Source of the DNA: an uncultured Chitinophagaceae bacterium
Lineage (GTDB): Bacteria > Bacteroidota > Bacteroidia > Chitinophagales > Chitinophagaceae
Length of the DNA: 57,488 nucleotides
Reading direction: 5' to 3'
Assembly (NCBI GenBank): GCA_903830285.1
Contig: CAIKTE010000102.1
Location: 1-57,488, forward strand
This document shows positions 401 through 54,176 of the stretch, in pieces. The notes under the pieces were generated by a model that had not been told where the DNA came from, made no database searches, and worked only from the letters and a program-made list of their open reading frames with translations. Both the position numbers and the translations under genes were made by a program. The stretch's first letter is position 1. Each line of letters begins with the position of its first letter.

Positions 401-1564
401 TTATATTGGAGAACTGCACGCTATTCCCATTTCCAGCCCGCGTAATTCTGCGAGGCCTCTTAATCGTCCAATGCCCGAATATCCCGGATTTGTTTTCTTA
501 TTCAGATCATCGAGCATTTGATGACCATGATCGGGCCTCATTGGAATATTGGTTTTTCTTTTATTCATTACAGCAATCACTTGTTTCACCACTTCATACA
601 TATTTACATCACCTTCCAAATGATTGTCTTCATAAAAATCACCCAATTCATTTCTTTTGGTACTTCGTAAATGCAGGAAATTAATTCTGTCACCAAACTG
701 TTTCAGCATTGCGGGCAGATCGTTATCAGGCCTTACACCAAATGAACCCGTACAAAAACAAAGGCCATTCGAATCATTGGGAACTGCATCAAACAATTTT
801 TCAATATCTGCAGCAGTACTTACTACTCTTGGTAAACCTAAGATCGGATAAGGAGGATCATCAGGATGTATCACCAGTTTAATTCCAACAGAATCTGCAA
901 CAGGACAAATGGCTTTTAAGAAATAAATTAAATGAGAACGAAGTTTGTTCGCATCAATACCCGCGTAAGTATCGAGTGCCTGCTGAAACTGATCGAGTGT
1001 GAAACTTTCTTCACTGCCCGGTAATCCTGCAATGATATTTCTTTGCAATTGATTTTTTTCAGCATCAGTCATACTATCAAAACGATGTTTTGCTCTTTGC
1101 AACTCATCACCTGAATATTCATTTGCTGCATCTTTTCTTTTCAGCATAAACAATTCAAAAGCAATGAAAGCGGCTTTTTCAAAACGCAGGGCTTTTGAAC
1201 CATCTGCAACAGTATATGCAAGATCAGTTCTTGTCCAGTCCAATACCGGCATAAAATTATACGTAATGATCTTCACCTTGCATGCAGCCAGATTCAACAA
1301 AGACTGTTTATAATTTTCTATGAATTGTAAATAATTCCCGGTTTGTGTTTTTATAGCTTCATGCACCGGAACGCTTTCCACTACATTCCATTCAAGGCCT
1401 GCATCTTTAATGATCTTTTTTCTATTCTGTATTTCTTCTATCGTCCACACTTCTCCATTCCGTATATGATGCAATGCAGTTACAACACCTGAACAACCTG
1501 CTTGTAATATATCACTGAGACTAACAGGGTCATTTGGCCCATACCAGCGCATCGTTTGTTGCAT
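401..1564 (-). CDS. uxuA: Mannonate dehydratase
   Basis: Converts D-mannonate to 2-keto-3-deoxy-D-gluconate, the entry of glucuronate carbon into central metabolism, in the cytoplasm; it has no signal peptide. The protein is about 387 aa, typical for UxuA. The N-terminal [11 protein letters not shown] motif, the HPDDPP segment and the C-terminal RPDHGHQM metal-site motif are characteristic of the family. I place the start at 1564 because its [12 protein letters not shown] aligns with the usual UxuA N-terminus; an in-frame ATG at 1579 would add five residues. It lies 83 bp downstream of the sulfatase gene and is probably co-transcribed with it. It is the only clearly cytoplasmic enzyme in the window, which suggests that the glycan degraded outside the cytoplasm yields glucuronic acid. 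Confidence 0.95.
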
Positions 1565-1647
1565 TTTAAATCTTTCCATTTACATAAATCTTAAAAGCGC
1601 TTTAATAAATATGAATACAATTGTTATGCTGCATTTGCCTTTCCTGC

Positions 1648-8511: not shown

Positions 8512-10845
8512 TTATTTTTTAAGTAAAGGATTCTCTTTATCGGTTGAAAAAGAATAAGGGAAAGCAGATTCATTTGTTCCTCTTGATTTTTCAGGTTTAT
8601 CTCCCATTGTAAAATTCAGCACGGCTCCTTTTTGCAAAGTTTCATGACTCAACCAGTTTTTTAAATAGGGTTGATCGTTCATCATCAATTTCTGAACATA
8701 TACATTGTTCTCATTGTTTGCAGGGGCATTAATGACTATTTTTTTCCCATTCTCTAATGAGATAGTTGCTTTTTGAAATAAAGGAGCACCCATCACATAT
8801 TGCCCACTCACGGGATTAACTGGATAGAATCCCAATGCAGAAAATAAATACCAGGCAGATGTTTGGCCATTGTCTTCATCACCGCAGTAACCGTCGGGTG
8901 TGGGTTTATACATTTTATTCATGGTCTCTCTTGCCCAGTATTGGGTCTTCCATGGTTCACCTGCATAATTGTACAAATAGATCATGTGTTGAACAGGTTG
9001 GTTGCCATGCGCATATTGCCCCATTCCCGCTACCTGCATTTCACGTATCTCATGGATCACCTGATGGTAAGCAGATTCATCAAAAATGGGTGGCATTACA
9101 AAAACAGAATCCAGCATTTTCGTAAATTCTTTCTTCCCTCCCATCAGATCGATCAATCCCTGAATATCATGAAACACACACCAGGTATAATGCCAACTGT
9201 TTCCTTCAGTAAAAGCACCTCCCCATTTAAATGGATTAAAATCTTTTTCAAAACTTCCGTCTTTGAACCTACCACGCATCAATTTCCTTTCAGGATCAAA
9301 AAGATTCTTGTAATTCATGCTTCGCTTCGCATAAAATTCCAATTCTTCTTTCGGCCGGTTCAATGTTTTAGCTAATTTATAAGTGGCATAATCGTCATAC
9401 GCATATTCTAAAGTACATGCCGCAGATTCCTTTGTATTGCCATCTATCGGAACATACCCGAGTTCATTATAAAATTTAATACCTGCGCGTCCCACAGCTC
9501 TGATAGGGCCTTCATTATTCGCGCCTTTTACAACAGCTTCATATAATGTGTTGATATCATAACCGCGAAGTCCTTTCACATAAGCTTCCGACACAACAGA
9601 AGCAGAATTATTTCCGATCATTGTATTGGCATAACCGGGACTTGACCACTCAGGCAGCCAACCACCTTCTTTATAATCATTGATCAAGCCTTCCTGCATT
9701 TCTTTGACGATAGATGGATAGGCCAAATTGAGGAATGGATATAATGCCCGGAAAGTATCCCAGAAACCTGTGCCACCAAACATATAACCGGGTAATATTT
9801 TTTTATTGTACTGACTGAAATGAACGATCTGATCATTCGCATCAATCTCATACAATTTATTCGGGAAGAATAAAGCACGGTATAAACAAGAATAAAATGT
9901 TCGAAGCTGATCGGTGGTGCCACCTTCTACTTTAATTCTGCTCAATGTTTTATTCCAGACAGTTTTTGCTTTTTGTTTGGTGGCTTCAAAATCATCATTG
10001 GCCAGTTCTCTTTTTAAATTGATATCCGCCTGTTCGATGCTGATAAAAGAAGATGCCACTTTTAAATGAACCTGCTCTCCTCTTATTGTACTGAAGCCGA
10101 TGATGGCTCCTGCATGAAAGGCAGTCATTTCCAATGAATCCTTTACCAGTTTATTTTCATGCCAGGTGTAATTGATCGAAAACGGTTTATCAATATAAAT
10201 GACAAAATAATTTTTTAATCCGGCAATGGCAGATCTTGTTGCTTTGGTTGAATAACCGATGATCTTATGTTCGTTAGGCAAGATCTTTATGTAAGAACCA
10301 TTTGTATAGGCATCGATCACAATAAAAGAACTGTCTGATCTTGGATAAGTAAACCTGAACTGGGCAGCTCTTTCTGTTGGTGTGATCTCTGCAGTCAGAT
10401 CATGATCAGCCAGATACACGCTATAATAATATGGTTTAGCGATCTCTGCTTTGTGCGAATACCAGCTTGCCCTGTCTTCTTCTTCAAATTTTAATTTACC
10501 CGTAACAGGCATAATGGAAAATTGTCCATAATCATTCATCCAAGGTGATGGCTGATGTGTTTGTTTGAATCCTCTTATTTTATATTGTGTGCCTTTTGGA
10601 TCGGTGACAGAGACTTCCGGTGTGTAAGTATATTGCCAGCCATTGCCCAATACGCCTGTTTGTGGTGTCCAGAAATTCATTCCCCAGGGCAATGCGATCG
10701 CGGGATATGTATTTCCGTTGGAAAAGTCTCTTTTGGAATCAGTACCCATTAAAGGATTCACCAGGTCTTCCGGCTGAAACTTTGTTTGCGCATTCACCAT
10801 TAAACTTGCGCATATACCAATCGAGAATGCTATTTTTTTGATCAC
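8512..10845 (-). CDS. Exported alpha-mannosidase (GH92)
   Basis: Calcium-dependent inverting exo-alpha-mannosidase family. The 777-aa protein has a signal peptide (about 1-19, VNAQ), an N-terminal beta-sandwich opening with LVNPLMGTD, and an (alpha/alpha)6 domain. EGNSWHYTW contains the expected acid Glu and GDEDNGQTSAWY the base aspartates; GGTGFWDTFRALYPF is another GH92 hallmark. The +1 subsite segment reads GNQP, whereas the other two GH92 proteins in this window read NEP, so a different linkage preference is likely. The start codon is GTG; no in-frame ATG lies closer to the signal peptide. It sits 9 bp downstream of the GH78 gene. Confidence 0.95.
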   Translation of the reverse strand: MIKKIAFSIGICASLMVNAQTKFQPEDLVNPLMGTDSKRDFSNGNTYPAIALPWGMNFWTPQTGVLGNGWQYTYTPEVSVTDPKGTQYKIRGFKQTHQPSPWMNDYGQFSIMPVTGKLKFEEEDRASWYSHKAEIAKPYYYSVYLADHDLTAEITPTERAAQFRFTYPRSDSSFIVIDAYTNGSYIKILPNEHKIIGYSTKATRSAIAGLKNYFVIYIDKPFSINYTWHENKLVKDSLEMTAFHAGAIIGFSTIRGEQVHLKVASSFISIEQADINLKRELANDDFEATKQKAKTVWNKTLSRIKVEGGTTDQLRTFYSCLYRALFFPNKLYEIDANDQIVHFSQYNKKILPGYMFGGTGFWDTFRALYPFLNLAYPSIVKEMQEGLINDYKEGGWLPEWSSPGYANTMIGNNSASVVSEAYVKGLRGYDINTLYEAVVKGANNEGPIRAVGRAGIKFYNELGYVPIDGNTKESAACTLEYAYDDYATYKLAKTLNRPKEELEFYAKRSMNYKNLFDPERKLMRGRFKDGSFEKDFNPFKWGGAFTEGNSWHYTWCVFHDIQGLIDLMGGKKEFTKMLDSVFVMPPIFDESAYHQVIHEIREMQVAGMGQYAHGNQPVQHMIYLYNYAGEPWKTQYWARETMNKMYKPTPDGYCGDEDNGQTSAWYLFSALGFYPVNPVSGQYVMGAPLFQKATISLENGKKIVINAPANNENNVYVQKLMMNDQPYLKNWLSHETLQKGAVLNFTMGDKPEKSRGTNESAFPYSFSTDKENPLLKK

Positions 10846-16248: not shown

Positions 16249-17955
16249 TCAGGAAAAATGCATACTATGTTTGAATGGTGTGAATCCTGTTACATAAACA
16301 GTTGGGTTATCTATATGCGGCAATGCTCCTCTTAATTGGAACCATGTGTGTAAACCTAAGCCCGGACCGAAATGAAGCTGATCGTTTCCAACAGTGTATA
16401 TTCCTTCCTGCTCTTTAAACGCAAAAATATCAGGCTTGTCTTGTTGTAGCACGCCCTGAAATGTTCCACCTCTTCTGAAGATCAGTTCTACAACGATCGG
16501 TACACGATCAGTTCCTTTGATGTCGAAATCTACCTGCATCCCTTTTCCTGTTTCAGAAATGATAACTGTATATTCTATATTCTGAATATTTGATTTTTCT
16601 CTTAATGTTCTTGGCATTTTAGCCAAATCTCCATCCGGCGATATTTTGTCTGCCGGCATTGGTTGATAATATGGCCCATCCAATTTGTTTCGCATGATCC
16701 ATTTGCCATTTTCTTCTTTTATTTCAGCTGATTGAAATTGACCTTTTCCAAAAAAAGATCCCGCAACCCTGATACCCTGCAAAACTGCATTGCCTTTATG
16801 AAAGGTCATGAAACCGGCGTTATTGGTCAGCAAAGTTGTGTCCCAGTTACCTCTTCTGATGCGTACCACTCCTGAATAAGGAAATGTTTTTACATAGCTG
16901 GTTGGTATTTCTTTGCTTGCGGGTAATTCTTTCCATAAGCCCGGATCGGATAAGAAATAACTCATTGAACCCAATAGCGATCTGAAATTATTTTTCTCGA
17001 TCATTCGGCACATTTCTGCCATCTCTCCGTTATTGTCTTTTAGGGCCAGAAAACGACAGGCATAATAATAAGGATCCATTCTGTCGATCTGTCCTTTGTC
17101 TTGTCTGTTAGAAGCTTCCGTAACTACTTCACCATTCGGATGCAAATAGTAGCGCATCATCATGATATTTTTTCTTACCGCATCTAAGATCTCAGGCCTG
17201 TTCATTCCTTTCGAAACTGTTATCAAAACCCGATCTACTACTGCAGAATAACCACCGGTACTTTTTTCAGTGTATTGCCCGTCAGGATCCAGATCAATAT
17301 GTTCATTCAACCATTGATTCACCCTGTCGGTATATTTTTTATCAGGAAATTGTTCATTCACTCTTACCAATGCAGCGCTAACAACCCAACGATGATTAGG
17401 CGTATGAATGCCGCCTGTTGCCAGTGCATTTCCTGCACGTTTCAAAAACTGTTCAAATAAAACCAATATTTTTTCCTGACCCGGTGTATTTGAATTTTTA
17501 AGGATCGCATATAAAGGAGCCATCACTTTTACAATAAAAGCCGTATCCGGAGTTGAATGAAAATTACTATCAACCAGATCAATGGTACCATCTTCGTGTT
17601 GCAGTTTTAATATTCCTTTAAATGCATCTTCCAGTTCTTTCAACAAAGTAGCGGAACGATAGTAGATCGATTCAGGTGTACCGATCGCGATACAAGCCTG
17701 ATCAATAAAACCGGCGGTGCTATGCGGTGTAGGAATATTAAATCCGTTTACATAAGCACCATAAAAATGGTCATTGGGATCTGTGATCTTTTTTGCTGCA
17801 GGTATCTTAATACCCTCGTCATTCATTTTGATGAGATCCAGTAACCATTTTGGTTTAACGGGCGTTTCATTATTATTCAATATGGAAGCAAAACCTAAAA
17901 AGGGTAATATGGTCAATGAAGCAGCACCTACGCTGACAAATTTTCTTCTATCCAT
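16249..17955 (-). CDS. Exported (alpha/alpha)-toroid protein, GH154-like
   Basis: A 568-aa protein with a Tat-like N-terminus (DRRKF, then a hydrophobic stretch to about residue 25). The toroid domain carries HTPNHRWVVSAAL (Asn167-His168) and, 43 residues later, YTEKSTGGY (Glu210, Tyr216). A beta-sandwich occupies roughly residues 370-568. The layout recalls heparinase-type lyases and GH154 beta-glucuronidases. I lean to GH154-like because of context (UxuA and GH105 indicate uronic acids), but I cannot confirm the family by eye. It lies 47 bp after the GH105 gene and 57 bp before the oxidoreductase gene. Confidence 0.5.
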   Translation of the reverse strand: MDRRKFVSVGAASLTILPFLGFASILNNNETPVKPKWLLDLIKMNDEGIKIPAAKKITDPNDHFYGAYVNGFNIPTPHSTAGFIDQACIAIGTPESIYYRSATLLKELEDAFKGILKLQHEDGTIDLVDSNFHSTPDTAFIVKVMAPLYAILKNSNTPGQEKILVLFEQFLKRAGNALATGGIHTPNHRWVVSAALVRVNEQFPDKKYTDRVNQWLNEHIDLDPDGQYTEKSTGGYSAVVDRVLITVSKGMNRPEILDAVRKNIMMMRYYLHPNGEVVTEASNRQDKGQIDRMDPYYYACRFLALKDNNGEMAEMCRMIEKNNFRSLLGSMSYFLSDPGLWKELPASKEIPTSYVKTFPYSGVVRIRRGNWDTTLLTNNAGFMTFHKGNAVLQGIRVAGSFFGKGQFQSAEIKEENGKWIMRNKLDGPYYQPMPADKISPDGDLAKMPRTLREKSNIQNIEYTVIISETGKGMQVDFDIKGTDRVPIVVELIFRRGGTFQGVLQQDKPDIFAFKEQEGIYTVGNDQLHFGPGLGLHTWFQLRGALPHIDNPTVYVTGFTPFKHSMHFS

Positions 17956-18002: not shown

Positions 18003-19148
18003 TTATTTTCTTAAGCCTTTGTATTGTTCATACGCCAATCCAAACATGATGAAAGAGCCATAACCAAATCCTGTTCCCTCTGTAATTTTTCGTGTGAGAT
18101 AATATTGTTTGTCACCGATACAGGTACCGCCGCAAATTCCGGAAGGGATCAAATAAGCACCGTCTGTTCTTTTCAGGTTGGATGTTTGTAATCCTTTATA
18201 TGCTTTATCTACAACAGGGGAATATTTTTTAGGATCCAATATTTTTAATTTCAATCCAACAGCGATGGTGTATGAGAACATTGCAGTGCTGGAACCTTCC
18301 TCCCAGTTCTGTGGATCCTCAGGAATTGCAACCAATTGATACCAGTGACCGGTCTCTTTATTTTGCAATGGCAGGATTGTTTCTACATAATGTTTATATG
18401 CTTTCTCCAATATTTTCCAATTGGCTGATCTTCTCGGAATAGTTGATAATGCATCGGCCAATGCCATACCGATCCATCCGTTACCCCTTGCCCAGATCTG
18501 GCTGCTTTTTCGGGTAATCTTATCAGCCCAACCAAATACACTGCAACCATCATTGTAATCAGTATTGTCTGCATCCCATCCATGCACCCATAATCCGGAT
18601 CTTTCATCAGTCAGTTTTTCATTATGAGCCTGATATTGTGCAACAAAATCTGCGATATATTTTTCATCTCCTGTTAAACGATACATTTCGAGCAGGAACA
18701 TGCTGATCATATAGATCGTATCATCCCAAAGTTCCACTGTCTCTGCACGATGCGATACACCGCCATTAGCAGCCCTTGGTATCTTTAAAAATTCCGCATA
18801 GATGCTATTGCATTTATCAAGGTATTTTTTATCGCCTGTTATCCTTGCTAAAAATGCCATGCCATGTGCAGATGCAATGGCATTCGGATGTTTACCATTG
18901 GCAACAGCATAAGTTGTATCCATTGCTTTTTGAATATAATCGAGGTATATCTTTTTTTCTTCAGCAGGTTTGCTGTTGTACAAATGAATAAGAGAATTCA
19001 AAAAAGTTGCCTGTCCCCAATCCCATTTATATTTTGCTGCAGGCATGAAAACTTCACGACCATGTCGGTCTACAGAATCCACCCAGGTTTGAGCCATAAC
19101 AGAAAAGGAAATGAAACTTGCGATGGTAAATACGAAAAATGATTTCAT
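18003..19148 (-). CDS. Exported unsaturated uronyl hydrolase (GH105, YteR-like)
   Basis: A 381-aa (alpha/alpha)6 enzyme with a signal peptide (residues 1-20, VMAQ). It hydrolyses 4,5-unsaturated uronic acids from lyase products. ELWDDTIYM at 139-147 contains the candidate catalytic aspartates 142/143, and WARGNGW at 219-225 is the second hallmark. The C-terminus has SGICGGTCIGD and YYLTRK, as in rhamnogalacturonyl hydrolases. It is the first gene of the seven-gene operon and is preceded by the operator cluster at 19164-19273, so it is probably strongly regulated. Rhamnogalacturonyl hydrolase is the likely specificity; an unsaturated glucuronyl hydrolase is the alternative. Confidence 0.9.
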   Translation of the reverse strand: MKSFFVFTIASFISFSVMAQTWVDSVDRHGREVFMPAAKYKWDWGQATFLNSLIHLYNSKPAEEKKIYLDYIQKAMDTTYAVANGKHPNAIASAHGMAFLARITGDKKYLDKCNSIYAEFLKIPRAANGGVSHRAETVELWDDTIYMISMFLLEMYRLTGDEKYIADFVAQYQAHNEKLTDERSGLWVHGWDADNTDYNDGCSVFGWADKITRKSSQIWARGNGWIGMALADALSTIPRRSANWKILEKAYKHYVETILPLQNKETGHWYQLVAIPEDPQNWEEGSSTAMFSYTIAVGLKLKILDPKKYSPVVDKAYKGLQTSNLKRTDGAYLIPSGICGGTCIGDKQYYLTRKITEGTGFGYGSFIMFGLAYEQYKGLRK

Positions 19149-25433: not shown

Positions 25434-25450
25434 GCACAATATCATTTTAT

Positions 25451-27866: not shown

Positions 27867-30092
27867 TTATTTTATGGATTCTGCCGAAAGATTAGTGTCT
27901 GGCATTTTAGTCCCCCAATCATAATTGGGCTTGCTTCCCATTTGCAACAGGAGTTTTGCGCCATTCTTGATATCATCATGATAGAACCATGTCTGGTTCC
28001 AGTTTTTTCCATTCAATGTTGCTGACTGAATATATTTATTTTCTGAAGAATTATTTTTTGCTTCGATCTCAAAGATCTTTCCATTGTCTAATTGGATCTT
28101 AACATCAGAGAACATAGGGCTGCCAATGCTGTATGCAGCAATGCCGGGTGTTACAGGATAAAAACCCATATAAGAAAAAACAACAAATGCGCTCATCCCT
28201 CCACCATCTTCATCACCCGGCATACCCATCAGATCATTGCGAAACCATTCTTTGAATAATGACCTGATTCGTTTCTGTGTTTTCCAGGGTTCTCCTGCAT
28301 AATTATACAAATAAGGAATGTGCATAGCAGGTTCATTAGCCATAGTGAACTGCCCAACATTCCCTGTTTGATCGGGAAACATTCTATAAAAAGTGCTTTT
28401 GCCTTTTCCCAATGGTTCAGCAAACATGCTGTCCAAGGCTTTACAGAAAGCCTTGTTGCCTCCGATCAATTGAATGAGATCCGCTATATTATGTTGCACA
28501 TCCCAACGATAGGTCCAGCCATTATTTTCTCCATAGTATGCAGACCTTCCACCAGAAAAACGATAATCAAATGGTTCAATGAATTTTCCATCTTTATCTT
28601 TCGGATGAAAAAAATTCGTTTTTGTATTGAAGAGTTTTCGATAGTTATAAGACCTGTTCAAATAGAATTCATAAGAATTTTGATCACCCAGATCTTTTGC
28701 CAGTTGCGACAAACACCATTGATCGTAAGAAGTTCCCAATGTTACGGCAACTGTTTGTCTTTGCTCTCTTGCATTCACTTCCGGAACCGTTTCTTTCTCC
28801 TCTTCATGCAAGGCAGGTATATAACCGCTGTCTTTATAGAATTGATCTAACCAACCTGCAGGTTTATCAGACCATGGGGCCAATGATTTTTCTTCGATCC
28901 CTTTTTTGCAAGCAAGAAAAGCAGTTTTCAGATCAAAATCTTTTATCCCTTTTGCATAAGCATCTGCAACAATTGCAACGCCATGATTAGAATTCATCCT
29001 TCTGGAATCTCCTGTTATTTCAGGGAAAGTTGGCATCCATAAATGATCCATCTGTTCTGCCATTGTGATATAAGACCTTACAATATTCAATTCTTTTTTA
29101 GGATCCAGTAATATTCTCAAAGGATGTGCAGCACGGTAAGTATCCCAGATCCAGTCATCGGTGTAAAAAGGTTTTCCTTGATCCTCATGCACTTTAGCAT
29201 CCGATGCACTGAAATATTTTCCATCTTCACTGATACAAACACATCTTTCCAGATAGCGATAAAGTGATGTATAGAAAATGGTCTTGTTATTTTCATTGGC
29301 ATCTGCCACTGTTATTTTGCCCAATGCTTCGTTCCATATTTTTCGGCCCGCATTGGCGACTGCGTCTAGATCATAATTCTTGATCTCTCTTTTCAGATTT
29401 TGTTTTGCCTGTTCTTCACTGATGAATGAAATACCATATCGGATCAAGATCTTTTGTGCTTTATCGCCAAAATAAATTTTTACATAATTATTTTCTTTGG
29501 TTGATCTTTTGGCGGACTGAGCAAATTCTGCATACAGGTATACTTTTGTCTTATTATTTAACAACTGATACCCTTTGATACTGTTTTGATATGCTTCAAC
29601 ATTCCCATTCTTTGTGCTGAATATCAGATAAGAAGATTTATTTTTTGTGAACTCAATTTCATAGATCGCAGATTGATGTGAAGCTGCAAAACGTACATTG
29701 ATCTCCTGTTCATCCAATAATACCGAATATGAATAAGGCTTAATGATCTCATGATCATACGAAAACGAAATGACAGGTTTCATATCCGCTTCCTCTCCCT
29801 GAAAGGGACTTAAATTAAAAGCAGAAGAACCACGATGGCTGGTAACGACTATCGGCAACCCTTTGATCACATCACCGGTATAATCATCCCTTTCGGGATA
29901 AACACGCAGCAAACTATTGGGAAGATGAATAGTAGGATAAGTTGGCACCAATAACTGACTGATATTACCCATATAAGGATTTACATAATCTACGGGCTGC
30001 TTTTGCTGCTGTTTGTTTTGTGTAATGCCGGTATTAAATACCAGAGCGGCACAAAACAAAGAAATCCATATTCTACAAAAAGATCTTCTCAT
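27867..30092 (-). CDS. Exported GH92-family protein, divergent N-terminus
   Basis: A 741-aa protein with a signal peptide (about 1-24). Its N-terminal VDYVNPYMGNISQLLVPT departs from the usual VDPFIGT...GHTFPG pattern, marking a distinct GH92 subfamily. The catalytic half is intact: GENNGWTYRW (acid Glu), MANEPAMHIPYLYNYAGEPW (+1 subsite) and MPGDEDGGGMSAF (base aspartates). It is probably an exo-alpha-mannosidase, although the changed N-terminal domain contributes to the active site in GH92, so another sugar is possible. It is encoded 6 bp after the other GH92 gene of the long operon. Confidence 0.88.
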   Translation of the reverse strand: MRRSFCRIWISLFCAALVFNTGITQNKQQQKQPVDYVNPYMGNISQLLVPTYPTIHLPNSLLRVYPERDDYTGDVIKGLPIVVTSHRGSSAFNLSPFQGEEADMKPVISFSYDHEIIKPYSYSVLLDEQEINVRFAASHQSAIYEIEFTKNKSSYLIFSTKNGNVEAYQNSIKGYQLLNNKTKVYLYAEFAQSAKRSTKENNYVKIYFGDKAQKILIRYGISFISEEQAKQNLKREIKNYDLDAVANAGRKIWNEALGKITVADANENNKTIFYTSLYRYLERCVCISEDGKYFSASDAKVHEDQGKPFYTDDWIWDTYRAAHPLRILLDPKKELNIVRSYITMAEQMDHLWMPTFPEITGDSRRMNSNHGVAIVADAYAKGIKDFDLKTAFLACKKGIEEKSLAPWSDKPAGWLDQFYKDSGYIPALHEEEKETVPEVNAREQRQTVAVTLGTSYDQWCLSQLAKDLGDQNSYEFYLNRSYNYRKLFNTKTNFFHPKDKDGKFIEPFDYRFSGGRSAYYGENNGWTYRWDVQHNIADLIQLIGGNKAFCKALDSMFAEPLGKGKSTFYRMFPDQTGNVGQFTMANEPAMHIPYLYNYAGEPWKTQKRIRSLFKEWFRNDLMGMPGDEDGGGMSAFVVFSYMGFYPVTPGIAAYSIGSPMFSDVKIQLDNGKIFEIEAKNNSSENKYIQSATLNGKNWNQTWFYHDDIKNGAKLLLQMGSKPNYDWGTKMPDTNLSAESIK

Positions 30093-30098
30093 GGCTAT

Positions 30099-32348
30099 CT
30101 ATTTATCATCTGACATTGAAGGTGGCAATTCACCATTATTACTCCATCCTGAAGGCTGATTTCCCATAACAAAAGAGAGCGTTCCTCCTTTCATGATATC
30201 AGTATGCCTGAACCAATTTTTTGTCAGAAGTAGTCCATTTAGAAAGACAGATTGTATATATATATTTTCCGGACCTGCATCTTTTGCAGTTATGCGCAAT
30301 AAATGACCATTTTGCAAATGGATGTTTACTTCTTTAAATATTGGGCTGCCGATGAGATACACATCCTGTCCGGTATTCGGATAAAATCCTAAAGCCTGAA
30401 AAGCAAACCATGATGACATCGCACCTGAATCATCATTACCCGGAAGGCCTGCCTGACTTGTATTATAAAACCTGCTCAGAATTTTGCGAACTATGGCAGC
30501 CGTCTTATCCTGTTTATTGATATAGTTGTACAGATCGGGTGTTAAAAATCCGGGTTCATTATTTACCTGAAACAAACCAAGAGAAACGGATTTATCATGC
30601 ATATCATGTGTAAAAAAAGTATCCAGTCTGTTTTCAAAAGATTTATATCCCCCACATTTCAGCACTAATTTTTTTACATCCTGGGGCACATAAAAAGAAA
30701 GTTCCCATGAATTTGATTCATAAAAAAAGCTGGACCATGATCCTGATTTCAAAGTGGTGAACTTATTTGCATTTTCCCATGTTTTATCTTTAAACCTTGG
30801 CCAGATGAAACCTTTGGCACCAAAGCTTTCAACATCCGGATTCCATAAATTTTCCCAGTTAGATGCCCGTTCCCGATATTTTTTATACAATTCCTCTTTG
30901 CCTAATCCCTTTGCCATCACAGCGATCGCATAATCATTATTGGCATATTCTAATGTTCTGCTTCCGGCCCTTTCGTAGTTTGTGGAAACAAATCCTACTG
31001 TGTTATAATCAGGGAGACCACCTCTGCCTTCCTTGCGCTCATCTCCGCCCGGTGATATCTCTGCATTTTTGATCATTGCTTCAAATGCTTTTTGATAATC
31101 GATCCCGTCCAGTTTTTTTACAAATGCATCTGCGATCAGCATATCACCATCCGTTCCACCCTGTACACGACCATTATCATTTCCGGACCGGGCATCAGGC
31201 ATATAACCTTCATATTTATAAATATCGATCAGAGAACGAAGAATATCTTTATTCAAGCTCGGCTTTAGTAAAGTATACAAAGGAAATGTTGCACGAAAAG
31301 TGTCCCATATCGCATAATAATCATCATAATAAGGTTCTGAAGAAAACCATTTCGGATTCTCTCCGGTTCGATCACTGGGCTGCAGAAAAGAATGATACAA
31401 TGCAGTATAAAAGATCTTTTTATTGTCTTCGTTACTGTCATTTATTTCCACCGCTCCCAGTATCGCATTCCATTTTGTTTCTGCTTCCTGTTTTGCTGCA
31501 TCCATACTCCAGGAATTGAGTTCTTTACTATTTTCTTTTGCTTTAGCAGAGCTGAGAAATGAAATACCCACTTTCATTTTAATGATCTGTCCTTCCCTGG
31601 TTTGAAAATCAAAATAGGCCCCTGTGGGATTACCATCATCAAATGATCCTTTAATTCCGGGCATCATTTTTCCCGATTTCCATATTCCCATTTCTTTAGC
31701 TGGTGTATCAAACTTTGCATAAAAATATACGGTATAGGCAGCTCCGATATTCCATCCTCCGCGAACTCGCGAATAACCCTGTATCTCTGTATTTGAAAGT
31801 ATCTGTACTTCAGAACCCACCAGCTGCTGAGTTTCTGCATTTTGATGGGGTTTTAATAAAAAACTACCTGCATCAATTAAGATATGTGACGCTTTGCTTT
31901 TCGGAAAAGTATATTCATGTAATCCCGCACTATGTGATGAGCTCAATCGAACAGCAACATGGTATTTATCGAGGGTTACGGAATATAAGCCAACAGATGC
32001 TTTTTCGTTTGATCTTGGAGAGGAATAATCTTTGAGATCAATATTACCCACCACCGGCATGACCAGGATATTCCCATACTTTGGCCCACCGCCGGTTCCA
32101 CTTACATGCACATGGCTAAACCCAACAATATTTGTTTTAGATTCCCAACCTGCATTCGTAAATTTATTACCGCAATCAGGTCCCAACTTAACCAGACTAC
32201 ATGGAACTGATGAGCCGGGGAAAATATGTCCCCCACCTTCTGTTCCAATAAAAGGGTCAACATAATTAGCATAGTTCTTATTACTTTGTTGTGAAAAACA
32301 AATGGCAGGCAACAGCAATAAGTAGTATAATATTTGTTTCATCATCAT
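30099..32348 (-). CDS. Exported alpha-mannosidase (GH92)
   Basis: A 749-aa protein with a short signal peptide (about 1-19, CFSQ) and the standard GH92 opening YVDPFIGTEGGGHIFPGSS. Downstream motifs are IWDTFRATFPLYTL, ESNSWELSFYVPQD (acid Glu), VNNEPGFLTPDLYNY and LPGNDDSGAMSSW (base aspartates). The usual YAGEPWKTQ after the NEP motif is replaced by INKQDKTAA, which suggests a different +1 subsite. Three consecutive Met codons start the gene; any could be used. It is 90 bp downstream of the GH43 gene, the largest internal gap of the long operon. Confidence 0.93.
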   Translation of the reverse strand: MMMKQILYYLLLLPAICFSQQSNKNYANYVDPFIGTEGGGHIFPGSSVPCSLVKLGPDCGNKFTNAGWESKTNIVGFSHVHVSGTGGGPKYGNILVMPVVGNIDLKDYSSPRSNEKASVGLYSVTLDKYHVAVRLSSSHSAGLHEYTFPKSKASHILIDAGSFLLKPHQNAETQQLVGSEVQILSNTEIQGYSRVRGGWNIGAAYTVYFYAKFDTPAKEMGIWKSGKMMPGIKGSFDDGNPTGAYFDFQTREGQIIKMKVGISFLSSAKAKENSKELNSWSMDAAKQEAETKWNAILGAVEINDSNEDNKKIFYTALYHSFLQPSDRTGENPKWFSSEPYYDDYYAIWDTFRATFPLYTLLKPSLNKDILRSLIDIYKYEGYMPDARSGNDNGRVQGGTDGDMLIADAFVKKLDGIDYQKAFEAMIKNAEISPGGDERKEGRGGLPDYNTVGFVSTNYERAGSRTLEYANNDYAIAVMAKGLGKEELYKKYRERASNWENLWNPDVESFGAKGFIWPRFKDKTWENANKFTTLKSGSWSSFFYESNSWELSFYVPQDVKKLVLKCGGYKSFENRLDTFFTHDMHDKSVSLGLFQVNNEPGFLTPDLYNYINKQDKTAAIVRKILSRFYNTSQAGLPGNDDSGAMSSWFAFQALGFYPNTGQDVYLIGSPIFKEVNIHLQNGHLLRITAKDAGPENIYIQSVFLNGLLLTKNWFRHTDIMKGGTLSFVMGNQPSGWSNNGELPPSMSDDK

Positions 32349-48335: not shown

Positions 48336-48347
48336 CTTCACTAATTT

Positions 48348-50012
48348 TTATTTAATTGATGTGGCTTTCATATCCCCTTCAATCAAAGCCCATTTCCAAA
48401 AATTTCTATCCGCAGGTTTATCATCAACCGATTCGATCACCCATTTGTCTTTTGAAACATTGACATCATAATTAATTTTGGATCCTCCTGGAAACTGAAA
48501 CTGCTTTTCTAATTTTTTTTGATCAGGGTTTGCTTCCAACAATTTTTTCGCAAATTGTTTTGGGTTGATATTTTCTGCTACAACCATGATCCCGATCTCA
48601 TCGACAGAATGAACAGCAACAAATACATGAGCAGGACATTGATATATTTTCCAACCATCATTTTCAGCAACAGGCTGATAACCTTCAGGAATAAATACGG
48701 GACCGGCAGCGCAAGCAAAATTTCGATAAACGCCTGTATTATTCCATTTCATAAAATCAGTACCCGGCCCTGCAACATGAAATGTTTGCGATACATTGAT
48801 GGCATTATCATTCAAGAAAAGTATCGTGGGACGAGCTACAATTTCTGTTACCGTACCCTGATTACTTCCGCCGGATGAGATCAAATAATTTTTCCCGGCA
48901 CTGTAAATTTCAGGGCATGTTTTTTCTCCATGTCCGATCTTCATAAAATAACCTTCACCCTTATTCTTTAATAATGCTACCACTTTATCAGCCGGTCTGT
49001 AAGGCATGCAGGAACCCATGATCGCATGGGCATCAGCACCATGTATATTGTGGTCGGGATTGCCCTCCGGTAAATAGCCCAACCATGCTTTCATAAAAAC
49101 AGAATGATAATCTGTCGTCAATTCCTGAAAGCCCACTTTATCATACCTTCTTCGCATCGGTGCAAAATGTTTGAGCTGATAACTGCCCAATGCATAGGTC
49201 CAGTTCATATAATCCAGCACATCACGTGCTTCAGTCCTTATTTTTTCGGAAGCAAAAGCTTCGAGATTCAATAACCCTGTTATTGTGTAGCCGCAGTATG
49301 GCAATGAATTGAATTCATACATTCCTGCCCCGGTCATCTGAATTAATAATGCAGATAATTTTTCTTCCATGCCGTTGGCAACGTTGTCATACATTGAATC
49401 TTTATTTCCATGTAATTGTTCCCATCTGTTTTTTAAATAACGGGATCCTTCAGTCATCAGCAAATGATTTTCAGTTTCATCCACTATATCCATTGTTTTA
49501 GGGGCTTTGTAACGAAACTTACTTCCTTCTTCAATCAATAAAACATCCAATAAATGTTTGGCAGTTTCGGGATAAAGTATATCCGGTTTATCCCCAAATA
49601 AATAAAGTATCGGTGTGAGGACAGCCAATGTAAAATCGTAATCACCATTTTTATTCATGGCCCATGATGACCCTGAAACACCCCATGGTATTGTTTTAAG
49701 AATGATCTTATTTACTTCATCAACATCTTTTTTCAATAATAATTTAGCAAGCCATATTCTCGGATTATTTACTTTGCCGCCATTAGGATCAAGGCTTTTA
49801 TTTGCCCAGTCCTGATAGATCGTATCGGCGAACATTGAATGTTTGTTCCATTGTATGTTTCTTTCATGCGGTACTTCTATATTCCCTTTCAACAATGCAG
49901 GCCGGTGACTTACAGATTGAGCAATTAAAGAAGTCAATCCTATCGCAGCAACAATCATGAAAATGATCACAATTGATGAAATTCCGATTTTAAAAAAAGT
50001 CTTTATTTTCAT
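48348..50012 (-). CDS. Unrecognised exported toroid protein, possible lyase
   Basis: A 554-aa protein starting at the ATG at 50012, one base after the preceding stop; a TTG at 50039 would overlap the upstream gene. A hydrophobic N-terminus (about 4-31) is followed by an (alpha/alpha) toroid and a beta-sandwich. The motif ETENHLLMTEGSRYL gives Asn182-His183, and YEFNSLPYCGY gives Tyr239, 56 residues later; heparinase-type lyases use an Asn/His and a Tyr at a similar distance. It shares the EFNS/Tyr/TGL segment with the adjacent gene. Lyase function is inferred, not shown. Confidence 0.5.
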   Translation of the reverse strand: MKIKTFFKIGISSIVIIFMIVAAIGLTSLIAQSVSHRPALLKGNIEVPHERNIQWNKHSMFADTIYQDWANKSLDPNGGKVNNPRIWLAKLLLKKDVDEVNKIILKTIPWGVSGSSWAMNKNGDYDFTLAVLTPILYLFGDKPDILYPETAKHLLDVLLIEEGSKFRYKAPKTMDIVDETENHLLMTEGSRYLKNRWEQLHGNKDSMYDNVANGMEEKLSALLIQMTGAGMYEFNSLPYCGYTITGLLNLEAFASEKIRTEARDVLDYMNWTYALGSYQLKHFAPMRRRYDKVGFQELTTDYHSVFMKAWLGYLPEGNPDHNIHGADAHAIMGSCMPYRPADKVVALLKNKGEGYFMKIGHGEKTCPEIYSAGKNYLISSGGSNQGTVTEIVARPTILFLNDNAINVSQTFHVAGPGTDFMKWNNTGVYRNFACAAGPVFIPEGYQPVAENDGWKIYQCPAHVFVAVHSVDEIGIMVVAENINPKQFAKKLLEANPDQKKLEKQFQFPGGSKINYDVNVSKDKWVIESVDDKPADRNFWKWALIEGDMKATSIK

Positions 50013-50013
50013 T

Positions 50014-51573
50014 TCAGTTGTATATAGGGTTAAGAACAATCAAAGGATCTTTAAGATCCCAATTATTTGGTATCTCGTAAACGATCTTGTACATAAAAGG
50101 ATAAAAGATCGAAGTTTCGATATTTGCTCTGACAGAATCTGCATTCAATGCAATAGCCATCATTCTGTGCAAATTTGTTTCAATACCGATATGCATGTGA
50201 TCGAATTCCCAGCTATTTTCTTTTAGATCTTCAACAGAACTGTTTTTTGAATACACAAGCAGTTCGAAATTTCTCGCTGCTATATCAGCCAGATAAATTT
50301 TCATTTGTTTTTCATCCACAATTACATTTGTTTTTCCTTCGCCCGGAATGTACATCCAGCCGATATCACCATCATCCGACCTCCAATGCATTGTTCCGTT
50401 TTTTAAAATGTGTGATACTTTTCTATTCCCCCATAATCCGCCCATCATCCATTCTTTCTGAATATAGGCTGTTATTTTTTTCAATCTGTCCCCTTCATAA
50501 TAATTAGATGTGATGCGTGAAAGAAATCTGGGTTGATCAAATCTTTTGAATTGTGCCAAAGCCTTTTCAGGCATGGAAATGCCCAGATCAAAAATGGGCA
50601 CAATAAAATTGGTCTCATTATGCGGCCCATTGCTTCCGGGTACCATAGCAATGGAAGAATCATCAACTGCCACTGTTATCCAAACGCCTGTGATAGCTGT
50701 ATATTTTTTCATGTCGATCCCATAGCTTCTCAAATAAGGCCCGCAAATATTTTGAAGATTGGCATTATAGAACTGAGACAGATCTAACCACAATTTTTTT
50801 TCTATCAGCTTTCCCATTTCCCTGAATTCTGGTGCCACCGCCATTTCTCGCCACAAAGCGAGTCCCGTAAAATCGACCCCATAATAAGTGGGAGAATTAT
50901 ATTCACATAGCGTATTATATTTCTGAAAATTTAAAAATATCTCTTTCGCTTTTTTAATCCCCGCTGCTTTAATTTCAGGAAGATTGAAATTAGATCCGAT
51001 ATAGTCCTGCATGAAAGAACTCATGATGGAAATATTATTATAATCAGGATTTACATTTCGGATAAAATCACCTCTTGCAGCATGAATTAAAGCTGTTTCC
51101 AATTCCTTCTTAAAATCTCCCGGCAGTATACTTTTATATTTATGATAGACTATGATCAAATCCGTGCCAATGAATTCACGCATATTTTGATCGTATTCTT
51201 TATCATTCACTGATCCCTTCCAGCAAGCATAATCTTTACTTTTCTCATCCAAATTCTGCAAACCGAATATCCATTTAATGATAGTAATTGCATTTTGAAT
51301 ATCCCCCTCTTGATTTCTGAAGAAAAGTGCTTCAGCCAATCTCATTTTATTTCTGGATCCGGCATGAGCATCCAGTATTGCTGTTACTGTTTTTCCTTTG
51401 GGAAATTCTTCAGTTATAAAATCATCGAATATTTTTTTTTGCAGCGGGCTGAGCGATTTATACTCAAATCTTTTTACATACAGTCCTGAATCATCACTAT
51501 CCTGCAGTAAGCCTTCTGCAAAAAGTGAGGATAGATTAAATATGGCCAGTAAGAAGAATAAATATTTTTTCAT
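50014..51573 (-). CDS. Unrecognised exported toroid protein, paralogue of the next gene
   Basis: I do not recognise a named family. The 519-aa protein has a signal peptide (1-19) and a mainly helical N-terminal two-thirds, then a beta-rich C-terminus. CEYNSPTYYGVDFTGL (Glu224, Tyr230) aligns without gaps with YEFNSLPYCGYTITGL in the following gene. The upstream DYNNISIM holds Asn179-Asn180 where that neighbour has Asn-His, so the catalytic histidine of a lyase may be missing or replaced. The two genes are separated by one base and are likely translated together. A substrate-binding or divergent lyase role is possible. Confidence 0.5.
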   Translation of the reverse strand: MKKYLFFLLAIFNLSSLFAEGLLQDSDDSGLYVKRFEYKSLSPLQKKIFDDFITEEFPKGKTVTAILDAHAGSRNKMRLAEALFFRNQEGDIQNAITIIKWIFGLQNLDEKSKDYACWKGSVNDKEYDQNMREFIGTDLIIVYHKYKSILPGDFKKELETALIHAARGDFIRNVNPDYNNISIMSSFMQDYIGSNFNLPEIKAAGIKKAKEIFLNFQKYNTLCEYNSPTYYGVDFTGLALWREMAVAPEFREMGKLIEKKLWLDLSQFYNANLQNICGPYLRSYGIDMKKYTAITGVWITVAVDDSSIAMVPGSNGPHNETNFIVPIFDLGISMPEKALAQFKRFDQPRFLSRITSNYYEGDRLKKITAYIQKEWMMGGLWGNRKVSHILKNGTMHWRSDDGDIGWMYIPGEGKTNVIVDEKQMKIYLADIAARNFELLVYSKNSSVEDLKENSWEFDHMHIGIETNLHRMMAIALNADSVRANIETSIFYPFMYKIVYEIPNNWDLKDPLIVLNPIYN

Positions 51574-51608: not shown

Positions 51609-54176
51609 CTATAAAACAATCGTTCCTTTCAATCGAATATCATCAGATGATGCCCCAACCATGATGGTATATACTCCTTTCGGTGTTACAAATTTTGATT
51701 GGCTTTCATCCCAGTAACGAAGTTGTGACTTATCTATTTCCACTTCTATACCGGATGATCCTCCTTGTTTTATTTTGATCCTTTTAAATCCTTTTAATTG
51801 TTTGATCGGCATTGGGATATCTGCATCAGGCATTTTTACATATACCTGCGCCACTTCATCTCCGTCTTTTTTACCATCATTCCTTATATCAAAACCAACT
51901 TTTATTTTTTCATCCAAATTTGTTATACGTAGTTTATTATAAGTAAAATGGGTATAGCTTAGGCCATATCCGAATGGATACAGTGACTTTCCCTTAAAGT
52001 ATTGATAGGTGCGGCCTTTGGTAATATCGTAATCATCGATGGCAGGCAATTCATCAAGATCATTGTAAAAAGTAAGTGTTAATCTTCCGGCAGGATTATA
52101 ATCGCCAAACAAAATATCTGCAATGGCATTTCCTCCTTCCTGACCTGAATACCAGGAATCCAGTATCCCCGGAATATTATCCTTGATCCATCCAATTGCG
52201 AGAGAACCTCCCGAAACCATTACAACAACCGTTTTAGGATTTGCGGCATAGATCTTTTGGATAAAGACTTCCTGATCTTTTGATAAACGAATACTTTCTC
52301 CGTCTTGCCCTTCGCGTTCAAAAAGCTTATTAATTCCCAATACTGCAATTGTTATATCCGCTGCTTTTGCAGCGTTGATAGAGCCTTTAAACAAGTCGGT
52401 ATAGTTTCTTAATTCATTGGGTGCTTTCCAAAAAAGTTTTGCAGCAGCTTCTCTTTTGTAATTAAAATACTCCACTTTAATATCGTATTCTTTTCCTGCT
52501 TCGAGGTCAATATCAGTAAATTCAGACACGACAGATTTTCTTCTCCATGAATCGATCAATAATTTCCCATTCAGATACAATCGCGATCCGTCATGTGCTA
52601 AAAAACCAAGGCTGTATTTACCTGATACTGCAGGAACAAGTTTACCGACCCATCTCACAGATAAAGGGGCATTGGGAATAAATGCATCCGGTTTTTGATT
52701 CAAAGGTTCAAAATTGATATTCTCTTCCATCCTGATCTTAGCAGTTCCCTCCAAATTCATATTCGTAAAATATTCTGCTTTCAAACCGCCGGGAAAAGAG
52801 GATTTTGTGATCAACTCATATCCTTCCAACCCTGTTATTGCTTGCCAGGGAGCATATATGATCTTTACTTTATTACCCACTTTATTTTGGATGCCCTGTA
52901 ATATGGAAACGGGATCACCAAAAGGAATCCCACTATAATCACCGAATTCAGTTGTTGCAGCATCAATACCAACAACTGCAATAGTTTTTACTTTCTTTAT
53001 ATTGATGGGGAGTATATTATTCTGATTCTTTAAAAGCACTGTGCTTTCATGTGCAGCTTCCAAGGCTAAAGCTTTGTGCTCGGCAGAACCAACAACCGAA
53101 GGCAATATTTTATTATAGGGGTTAAAATCAGGGTTATCAAATAACCCCAACTGCATTCTTGCGCGCAAAACCCTGTACGCAGCAGAATCAATATCATTTA
53201 TTGAAACCATTCCCAATCTATACGCATTCAATAATGGTTGCGTATAAATATCATCACCACATTCCAGATCAAGGCCGGCTTTGATTGAAACCATTGCAGC
53301 AAGTTCTTTTGTTTTCACATATTTATGCCCGTCGATCAATTGATTGGGACCACCACAATCTGAAACGACATATCCTTTGAATCCCCATTCATCTCTTAAG
53401 AGTTTTGTCAACAGCCATGAGTTAGCCGTGGCAGGAATTCCATTTACTGCATTGTAAGAAGACATGATGGATGCAGCCTTCCCTTCTTTGATACAGGCTT
53501 CGAATGCCGGTAAATAATATTCACGCAGTAATCGCATGGAAACATTTGCATTATTGGAAAAGCGGTTGGCTTCTTTGTTATATACTGCAAAATGTTTTGG
53601 AGTAGACACTACTTTTAAATATCTAGGATCATTGCCCTGCAATCCTTTTACAAATTGAACACCTAAAACACTTGCCAGATAAGGATCCTCGCCATAGGTC
53701 TCGGGAGTTCTTCCCCAACGCGGATCACGAGCCATATTAATAGTCGGTGACCAGAAAGTGAGCAGATCATTGAAACGTAATGTTTGCTTTTTTCCCCATT
53801 CCAATTCATTCCAGCGGGCACGTGCTTCATCAGAAATAGCAGTGGCAATCTTATAATGCAATTCTGGATTCCACATACTTGCCAATGCTATGGCTTGCGG
53901 AAATACCGTAAATTTTCCCGGACGAACAATTCCATGCAATGCTTCATTACCGTGATAATATTTATCAATATTCAATCGCGGAATTCCGGGAGAACTTGCA
54001 ATTAACAAGCTGATCTTTTCTTCAACAGTCAATTGATTCATCAAGTCCATGATCCTTTCATGCTGCGGCGCATTCTCATCTCTGAATAATTGCTGCGCAT
54101 GGCTTATCACCGGATGGATAGTAAACAAAAACATCAACCCGACGAAAGTAAATCTCTCCAGAATTTTGCAGAACAT
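51609..54176 (-). CDS. Exported beta-glucosidase-type enzyme (GH3) with PA14 insertion
   Basis: An 855-aa protein with a signal peptide (about 1-27). GH3 TIM-barrel with KHFAVYN (His195) and VSDCGG (nucleophile Asp273), followed by the alpha/beta sandwich. A PA14 module (about 462-598, LKAEYFTNMNLEG, AHDGSRLYLNG) is inserted in that sandwich, and an Fn3-like domain closes the protein. PA14-containing GH3 enzymes include beta-glucosidases and beta-xylosidases; the insertion shapes the active-site entrance. The usual nucleophile motif ends SDW, so SDC is a small variation. It lies 15 bp after the second GH28 gene. Confidence 0.93.
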   Translation of the reverse strand: MFCKILERFTFVGLMFLFTIHPVISHAQQLFRDENAPQHERIMDLMNQLTVEEKISLLIASSPGIPRLNIDKYYHGNEALHGIVRPGKFTVFPQAIALASMWNPELHYKIATAISDEARARWNELEWGKKQTLRFNDLLTFWSPTINMARDPRWGRTPETYGEDPYLASVLGVQFVKGLQGNDPRYLKVVSTPKHFAVYNKEANRFSNNANVSMRLLREYYLPAFEACIKEGKAASIMSSYNAVNGIPATANSWLLTKLLRDEWGFKGYVVSDCGGPNQLIDGHKYVKTKELAAMVSIKAGLDLECGDDIYTQPLLNAYRLGMVSINDIDSAAYRVLRARMQLGLFDNPDFNPYNKILPSVVGSAEHKALALEAAHESTVLLKNQNNILPINIKKVKTIAVVGIDAATTEFGDYSGIPFGDPVSILQGIQNKVGNKVKIIYAPWQAITGLEGYELITKSSFPGGLKAEYFTNMNLEGTAKIRMEENINFEPLNQKPDAFIPNAPLSVRWVGKLVPAVSGKYSLGFLAHDGSRLYLNGKLLIDSWRRKSVVSEFTDIDLEAGKEYDIKVEYFNYKREAAAKLFWKAPNELRNYTDLFKGSINAAKAADITIAVLGINKLFEREGQDGESIRLSKDQEVFIQKIYAANPKTVVVMVSGGSLAIGWIKDNIPGILDSWYSGQEGGNAIADILFGDYNPAGRLTLTFYNDLDELPAIDDYDITKGRTYQYFKGKSLYPFGYGLSYTHFTYNKLRITNLDEKIKVGFDIRNDGKKDGDEVAQVYVKMPDADIPMPIKQLKGFKRIKIKQGGSSGIEVEIDKSQLRYWDESQSKFVTPKGVYTIMVGASSDDIRLKGTIVL

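What the first reader, a model, noticed from the sequence alone, without database searches (positions are those of the whole stretch)
48348..51573. Tandem pair of unrecognised toroid proteins sharing a catalytic-like motif
Two adjacent exported proteins share E-[FY]-N-S, Tyr, Gly and TGL in an ungapped ~23-residue segment (Glu233/Tyr239 and Glu224/Tyr230), preceded 45-51 residues earlier by Asn-His (first protein) or Asn-Asn (second). Heparinase-type lyases place their Asn/His and Tyr similarly. The operons contain two GH105 enzymes that need a lyase product, yet no recognised polysaccharide lyase is present. This pair is the best candidate for the missing lyase, or for a lyase plus an inactive partner.
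Basis: partly seen in the sequence, partly recalled or inferred. Interest (0 to 1): 0.68.

Follow-up and report, generated by a model that had tools for sequence, protein, structure and literature searches.

The report
Likely unrecognised uronic-acid lyase pair

Summary
The shared segment is real: A (48348-50012) and B (50014-51573) match at 8 of 15 residues. Pairwise this is not significant (E 0.49), but their family profiles match at 99% probability, E 4e-19. E233, Y239 and R288 (A numbering) are invariant in 21 of 21 aligned relatives.

Pfam, NCBIfam and PDB sequence searches gave only chance-level hits. AlphaFold models are poor (pLDDT 47.5, 38.9). B's six best Foldseek hits are all heparinase/alginate-type lyases (one below E 0.001); A's are noise.

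A third orphan, C (16249-17955), next to a GH105 gene, carries Asn-His, Glu-x-Ser-Tyr and Arg. It gives the clearest profile match to heparinases (E 6e-5) and lies within 10 kb of GH92 genes in 8 of 14 genomes, against 4 of 66 GH88/105 genes.

Activity is inferred, not shown.

The parts
48348..50012 (-). Protein A, 554 aa, exported, Asn-His type candidate lyase
   Evidence: T180-E181-N182-H183, E233, S236, Y239, R288 invariant in 14 of 14 A-type sequences
49272..49316 (-). A motif E233-FNSLPYCGYTITGL-L247 (Tyr239)
49464..49469 (-). A N182-H183, candidate carboxylate neutraliser and base
50014..51573 (-). Protein B, 519 aa, exported, Asn-Ile type candidate lyase
   Evidence: N180, E224, Y225, Y230, R282, Y284 invariant in 8 of 8 B-type sequences (one partial)
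50860..50904 (-). B motif E224-YNSPTYYGVDFTGL-L238 (Tyr230)
51034..51036 (-). B N180, aligned with A N182 and with the Asn of the heparinase Gly-Asn-His
16249..17955 (-). Protein C, 568 aa, twin-Arg-type leader, third orphan of the same kind; homologs sit next to B homologs in L005 and L006
   Evidence: profile match to heparinases
17392..17397 (-). C N187-H188, in register with heparinase Gly-Asn-His
   Evidence: 14 of 14
17248..17268 (-). C E230-KSTGGY236 segment; E and S in register with heparinase E-x-S-x-x-Y, Tyr at +6 here and +5 in half of the C family and in heparinases
   Evidence: E230 and S232 in 13 of 14
18003..19148 (-). GH105-type unsaturated uronyl hydrolase (PF07470) adjacent to C
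4524..5696 (+). second GH105-type enzyme (PF07470)
27867..32348 (-). two GH92 alpha-mannosidase-family genes
8512..10845 (-). third GH92 gene
51609..54176 (-). GH3 gene just upstream of B
401..1579 (-). UxuA, mannonate dehydratase (glucuronate catabolism)

Best explanation
[quoted passage not shown] They belong to two sequence families (A/B and C) without a Pfam or NCBIfam model, distantly related to heparinase-type polysaccharide lyases. Proposed mechanism: the conserved Asn (A N182, B N180, C N187) neutralises the carboxylate of a uronic acid in subsite +1; the Tyr after the conserved Glu (A Y239, B Y230, C Y236) protonates the leaving oxygen and, for D-glucuronate, may also abstract the C5 proton; the His after Asn in A and C can act as base or activator, whereas B, with Ile there, would rely on Tyr plus a residue of the beta domain; the invariant Arg (A R288, B R282, C R284) holds the substrate. 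The unsaturated uronic acid left at the new non-reducing end is then removed by the GH105 enzymes, and GH92 enzymes take off the alpha-mannose. B neighbours an Asn-His partner (A or C) in all four B-orthologue loci seen, so the two may cut different bonds in sequence. Shown: A-B homology, conservation, similarity in register to heparinases (clear for C, weak for B), gene context. Inferred: fold, lyase chemistry, substrate (a glucuronate/mannose gum or glucuronomannan), division of labour.
For: A-B profile match 99.1%, E 4e-19. E/Y/R invariant in 21 of 21. C (16 sequences) versus 14 heparinase-model proteins: Prob 64.7, E 6e-5, score 48 against a maximum of 19 in 15 shuffles; versus the 9-sequence PL12-like subset, E 1e-4 over 255 columns, with C Asn-His on heparinase Gly-Asn-His and Glu, Ser on Glu, Ser. 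All 14 C members have a Tyr 5 (7 of 14) or 6 (7 of 14) residues after that Glu/Gln; in the heparinase consensus it is at +5. B versus the 14: E 0.005, score 33 against shuffle maximum 20; in the printed PL12-like alignment B N180, E224, S227 and Y230 sit on heparinase Asn, Glu, Ser, Tyr. Foldseek of B: GAGase VII E 5e-4, then heparinase III, Atu3025, exoHep and Dp0100 (two entries), ranks 1-6. Spacing agrees with residue data for PL33, PL15 and PL21. Context: C next to GH105 in the window and in G150; C within 10 kb of GH92 in 8 of 14 genomes versus 4 of 66 GH88/105 genes; UxuA in the window; a B-type paralogue about 6 kb from UxaC, on the other strand, in the same genome. No recognised PL Pfam model in the window.
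Against: A-type profiles show no direct signal to heparinases (score 16.8; 25 of 60 shuffles reach it), and the merged A+B profile is at shuffle level too. B versus the PL12-like set alone is E 0.019, 0.032 and, with one Streptomyces relative added, 0.14. A's model is meaningless (pLDDT 38.9, no relevant hit); B's is poor (47.5), only one Foldseek hit passes E 0.001, and its VIA Z of 7-9 lies within the noise stated for such models, level with unrelated helical proteins. C also scores modestly against GH88 (32, E 0.005) and A+B against GH88 (27, E 0.02), so part of the signal may be generic toroid. The C-heparinase result was the best outside A/B pairs among 40 comparisons. C and the A/B profiles do not match each other. 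The window's own C has its Tyr one residue off the heparinase Tyr. No conserved beta-domain His/Tyr could be placed across B-type or A-type sequences. GH105 is within 10 kb of C in only 3 of 14 genomes.
Confidence: 0.62

Rival explanations
1. They are uronyl C5-epimerases rather than lyases: the same Asn/Tyr/His apparatus serves the human dermatan sulfate epimerase DS-epi1, which shares the fold.
For: PMC11848413 section 17 describes DS-epi1 as sharing structural and mechanistic features with these lyases; human DS-epi1 is in B's VIA list.
Against: Catabolic locus with GH105 enzymes, which act on lyase products, and GlcA catabolism genes; an epimerase would not supply GH105 substrate.
Confidence: 0.07
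2. They are toroid glycoside hydrolases or another non-lyase catalyst, and the Glu is the acid.
For: Glu is invariant in A/B-type; weak C-GH88 and A+B-GH88 profile scores; many (alpha/alpha)6 hydrolases exist, and GH105 and GH76 chains stand level with lyases in VIA.
Against: Asn and Tyr are equally invariant in B-type and A-type and, in B, fall on the lyase residues; the heparinase set carries Glu/Ser at the same place; heparinases outscore GH88 for C (48 versus 32).
Confidence: 0.14
3. A is an active lyase and B a degenerate, non-catalytic partner.
For: B has Ile where A and C have the His after Asn; B neighbours an Asn-His protein in the four B-orthologue loci seen.
Against: N180, E224, Y230 and R282 of B are invariant in 8 of 8 relatives, with T-N-V and E-F-N-S-P-S-Y kept in a Streptomyces relative; PL40 has Trp after the Asn and is active (PMC12915356); B, not A, resembles heparinases in profile and fold search.
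Confidence: 0.12
4. They are glycan-binding or scaffold proteins without catalysis.
For: No activity is shown; Pfam, NCBIfam and PDB sequence searches gave only chance-level hits.
Against: Invariant polar residues at the expected catalytic places, also in Streptomyces relatives of A, B and C and a Subdoligranulum relative of C.
Confidence: 0.05

Closest known systems
PL12/PF16889-type heparinases (heparinase III)
   Same: Asn-His then Glu-x-Ser-x-x-Tyr about 50 residues on, aligned with C and B; rank 2 Foldseek hit of B is heparinase III.
   Different: None of the 21 A/B-type or 14 C sequences hit PF16889 or any heparinase model at E 1; shorter; different locus type.
PL33 (BT4410) and the GAGases (PL35 by the abstract of PMC11262172)
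   Same: PL33: two-domain toroid plus beta, Asn-Tyr spacing 53; GAGase VII is B's top Foldseek hit; PL33 chains are in the VIA list.
   Different: No sequence match to their PDB chains; a beta-domain His equivalent to H444 is not securely placed.
PL40 (Uly1040, ulvan)
   Same: Asn245-Trp246, residue 301 (acidic), Tyr305, toroid plus beta (PMC12915356 passages); shows that the residue after Asn may vary.
   Different: About 850 aa; uses Asp358 and a His/Mn arrangement; here an Arg is invariant at a comparable distance after Tyr.
PL27 (Rha-GlcA lyase of arabinogalactan)
   Same: Plant-gum substrate and an (alpha/alpha)6 domain.
   Different: Reported domain order is beta-sandwich first, barrel second (PMC8377490 passages); here the N-terminal part is predicted helical and the C-terminal part strand (low confidence).
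Bacteroides intestinalis xanthan-oligosaccharide locus
   Same: GH88, GH92 and GH3 act in sequence and lysates have a lyase activity whose enzyme was not identified (review PMC10881899 passages); this window and G150 carry GH105, GH92 and GH3 together.
   Different: That locus was not examined here; whether it encodes A, B or C homologs is unknown.

Membership tests
Heparinase-type lyase superfamily (PL12/15/17/21/33/39 fold clan) | (alpha/alpha)n toroid followed by antiparallel beta domain | tested here: inconclusive
   B model pLDDT 47.5, pTM 0.37, mainly helices to residue 342, then mainly strands; A model 38.9; fold search suggestive for B only; C not folded
Heparinase-type lyase superfamily (PL12/15/17/21/33/39 fold clan) | catalytic Asn about 50-60 residues before a catalytic Tyr | tested here: met
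   A N182-Y239 (57), B N180-Y230 (50), C N187-Y236 (49); Asn and Tyr invariant in A-type 14 of 14 and B-type 8 of 8; C: Asn 14 of 14, Tyr at +5 or +6 of the Glu/Gln in 14 of 14. Presence and position only; catalysis not shown
Heparinase-type lyase superfamily (PL12/15/17/21/33/39 fold clan) | activating His and second Tyr in the beta domain | tested here: inconclusive
   B H388 and H396 are kept in 4 of 4 B orthologs but not across B-type; no secure family-wide candidate in A-type or C
Heparinase-type lyase superfamily (PL12/15/17/21/33/39 fold clan) | beta-elimination activity with 235-nm product | not testable with these tools
   needs protein and substrate
Pfam heparinase families (PF16889, PF07940) | score over the curated cut-off | tested here: not met
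   neither listed at E 1 among 21 A/B-type and 14 C members; the families listed are unrelated chance-level hits, best E 0.002
CAZy PL12/PL15/PL17/PL21/PL33/PL39 as sequence families | clear sequence similarity to a member with a solved structure | tested here: not met
   phmmer of A and B: 0 hits at E 10; profile searches found no lyase; the C profile's best hit was THR6, 8ga6 (E 3e-4, three weak pieces)
Other CAZy PL families or non-classified PL entries | membership in CAZy's own groups | not testable with these tools
   no CAZy/dbCAN library on hand
GH88/GH105 | PF07470 match | tested here: not met
   PF07470 not listed for A, B, C or relatives; profile scores 17 (B), 27 (A+B), 32 (C) against shuffle maxima 22-24

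The most novel reading that the evidence does not exclude
A/B and C found two new polysaccharide lyase families: an Asn-His and an Asn-Ile enzyme encoded as a coupled pair that together open a beta-GlcA/alpha-Man backbone (gum ghatti-type glucuronomannan, xanthan side chains). The C family would be the unassigned lyase in GH92/GH88 mannose-glucuronate loci, including the unidentified xanthan-oligosaccharide lyase activity of gut Bacteroides.
Probability: 0.15. Interest if true: 0.75.

Novelty: new variant of a known kind. Interest (0 to 1): 0.54.

Why it matters
If right, two families without Pfam or NCBIfam models, seen here in Bacteroidota MAGs and Streptomyces (C also in Subdoligranulum), become testable lyases. 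That would fill a visible gap in loci that carry GH105 and GH92 but no recognised lyase, and give tools for cutting glucuronate/mannose gums. The tandem Asn-His/Asn-Ile arrangement would also test how the toroid lyases handle the second base.

Tried and rejected
Pairwise BLASTP as proof of A-B kinship: rejected, E 0.49; replaced by family profiles. Fold search of A: no heparinase-type hit in the 50 rows shown, no hit at E 0.001; discarded because the model is pLDDT 38.9. VIA second look for B: PL5, PL8, PL12, PL15, PL17, PL33 and PL39 chains appear (some family numbers recalled), but so do designed repeats, epimerases, GH105 and GH76 at equal Z; treated as weak. Viral-contig scans for more homologs: 0 relatives. 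Direct A-type versus heparinase profile and the merged A+B profile: at shuffle level. PL17-like set: no convincing signal; PL8 set (two sequences only): C 31 (E 0.01) against shuffle maximum 23, otherwise nothing. Of the fetched reference loci, L073 and L082 were dropped because the mechanical ORF picked the wrong strand, and L058, L068 and L074-L077 were not used. PL27 considered from the literature: reported domain order differs. Paper searches for a described member listed none that I could recognise as A, B or C; that is not proof of absence, since most subscription papers and CAZy are not held. The uniform-placement null for GH92 and GH88 near C is too generous because CAZyme genes cluster; the GH88/105 comparison is the fairer control, and four of the eight GH92-positive genomes are one genus.
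Full report
What is there. The span holds two genes on the minus strand, B (50014-51573, 519 aa) and downstream of it A (48348-50012, 554 aa from the ATG), one base apart. They lie in a run of carbohydrate genes. In minus-strand order: GH2, GH28, GH3, B, A, a glutaminase-like protein, an esterase, a 721-aa orphan, GH28, GH2, two GH27, GH43, two GH92, GH95, a GH95-like protein, GH106, GH105, orphan C, an oxidoreductase, a beta-helix protein, GH78, a third GH92 and a GH63-like protein; then on the plus strand a second GH105 and a GH43-like gene, and again on the minus strand a sulfatase and UxuA (family names for GH27, GH78, GH105 and GH63-like are my reading of the Pfam hits). A and B have only chance-level Pfam hits, no NCBIfam hit and no PDB sequence relative.

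Is the shared motif more than chance? As a single pair, no: BLASTP E 0.49. As families, yes. Relatives were collected from 395 genomes of the phylum: the A query matched 2 of 395 and the B query 3 of 395, the window genome included in each; a B-type profile matched 11 of 395; named MAG loci L004-L006 (Ferruginibacter, Runella, Rudanella) came. The A-type (14 sequences) and B-type (8 sequences, one partial) profiles align at 99.1% probability, E 4e-19, over 154 columns covering the motif; the reversed control gives E 0.36. E233, Y239 and R288 are invariant in all 21 aligned sequences. A-type sequences also keep T-E-N-H 14 of 14; B-type keep the Asn 8 of 8, followed by Ile, Phe or, once, His. 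A Streptomyces relative of B keeps the Asn, E-F-N-S-P-S-Y and G-P-M-A-R-C-Y; one of A keeps E-N-H and E-F-S-A-R-P-Y.

A third protein. In L005 and L006 B is preceded by a different orphan, whose homolog in this window is C, 16249-17955. C was not in the finding. Its family (14 of 395 genomes; also three plasmid records of Subdoligranulum and Streptomyces) keeps G-G-x-H-T-x-N-H-R-W in 14 of 14, Glu and Ser of Glu-x-Ser in 13 of 14 each, and S-x-R-x-D about 50 residues on in 14 of 14. A Tyr stands 5 residues after the Glu in 7 of 14 and 6 after it (Gln in one) in the other 7, the window's C among the latter. In the four B-orthologue loci seen (window, L004, L005, L006) B is directly beside an Asn-His protein: A in two, C in two. 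G150 has a B-type gene and C with a GH95 and a GH105 between.

Relation to known lyases. Profile-profile comparison used proteins matching the heparinase model PF16889 in 70 genomes of the phylum: 14 of the 15 loci fetched, 9 grouped by me as PL12-like and 5 others. C (16 sequences) against these 14 gives Prob 64.7, E 6e-5, score 48 against at most 19 in 15 column shuffles; against the 9 alone, Prob 52, E 1e-4 over 255 columns. In the first run, one of 40 comparisons, the figures were Prob 26, E 7e-4; a trimmed rerun (Prob 33, E 5e-4, score 42) stood above all 60 shuffles (best 24) and all 20 decoy families (best 31, GH88/105). C Asn-His falls on heparinase Gly-Asn-His, and C Glu and Ser on heparinase Glu and Ser; the window C Tyr is one residue past the heparinase Tyr, while the +5 half of the C family has exactly the heparinase spacing. 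B is weaker: E 0.019 against the PL12-like set, 0.032 in the trimmed rerun with 0 of 60 shuffles reaching it, 0.14 with the Streptomyces relative added, and 0.005 against all 14; its Asn, Glu, Ser and Tyr fall on the heparinase ones. A alone gives nothing (25 of 60 shuffles reach it); it is linked only through B. Against this reading, C also scores 32 (E 0.005) and the merged A+B profile 27 against GH88, so some of the signal may be generic to toroids. C and A/B profiles do not match each other. No member reaches a heparinase Pfam model; NCBIfam gave unrelated hits with E 0.019 or worse. Profiles against PDB sequences gave a coat protein (E 0.24) for A/B and, for C, THR6 (8ga6, E 3e-4, repeated weak pieces) and weaker unrelated chains, none a lyase.

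Structure. Both AlphaFold jobs had shallow alignments (4 and 2 rows) and gave poor models: B pLDDT 47.5, A 38.9. B's Foldseek list starts with GAGase VII (E 5e-4, the only hit under 0.001), heparinase III, Atu3025, exoHep and Dp0100 twice, over 631-704 columns with TM-scores of 0.16-0.25. VIA-align shows the same kinds of chain at Z 7-8, level with unrelated helical proteins. A's list is noise.

Mechanism. In PL33, N238 is proposed to stabilise the enolate, Y291 is acid/base and H444 activates it. PL15 and PL21 use the equivalents of that Tyr as acid and H311/H202 as base for L-iduronate (PMC11848413 sections 11 and 17 read in full, other passages seen). PL40 uses Asn-Trp, Tyr and a beta-domain His (PMC12915356, passages). 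Distances from Asn or His to Tyr are 53-55 in the first three and 60 in PL40; here 57/56 (A), 50 (B) and 49/48 (C). I therefore propose Asn neutralisation, Tyr acid (or acid/base), His after Asn as extra base in A and C only, and Arg as a substrate contact. The beta-domain His/Tyr partner could not be placed; B H388 and H396 are conserved in 4 of 4 close orthologs.

Substrate. C lies within 10 kb of GH92 in 8 of 14 genomes (5 of 9 genera), against 4 of 66 GH88/105 genes in the same 14 genomes, two of those four being in this window (Fisher p 4e-5; four of the eight genomes are one genus). GH105 is within 10 kb of C in 3 of 14 (window, G150, G158). SusC/SusD-type genes lie near B or C in L004, L005 and nine other C loci. 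The window has UxuA, and the genome's second B-type gene lies about 6 kb from UxaC, glucuronate isomerase, on the other strand. Together these suggest D-glucuronate plus alpha-mannose, with Rha, Gal, Ara and GalA decorations: a plant gum or mucilage such as a glucuronomannan of the gum ghatti kind (that structure, and the sugar assigned to each GH family, are recalled). The enzyme trio GH88, GH92 and GH3 finishes xanthan oligosaccharides in Bacteroides intestinalis, where a lyase activity was seen but its enzyme not identified (review PMC10881899, passages). Whether that species has these families was not tested.

Verdict.

Noticed in passing
window 42651-44816 (-): 721-aa orphan without a Pfam match; two homologs stand side by side in G150 (L044 3735-5903 and 5903-8062), in a locus of similar content.
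   Followed up: partly
L014, L015, L016, L017, L020, L024, L025, L026: In other genomes A-type (T-E-N-H) proteins often come with a 311-336-aa protein just upstream; two of these were scanned (L014, L015) and hit Sortilin-Vps10/BNR Asp-box propeller models.
   Followed up: partly
L042 856-2268 and 8408-10324: The genome's second B-type protein lies about 6 kb from glucuronate isomerase UxaC, in a region also holding an arabinose isomerase and a sodium-solute symporter.
   Followed up: partly
L117 10502-12334: Downstream of a Streptomyces C homolog lies a 610-aa ORF without a Pfam match, with its own Asn-Asn and R-Y-S-E-x-H segments; possibly another toroid protein.
   Followed up: no
window 23100-25454 (-): Divergent GH95-like protein next to a regular GH95.
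   Followed up: no
window 46395-48341 (-): Glutaminase-A-like protein (DUF4964/DUF5127) inside a carbohydrate operon, directly downstream of A.
   Followed up: no
window 13141-14862 (-): Beta-helix protein with weak GH28 and PF12708 matches; could itself be a lyase.
   Followed up: no
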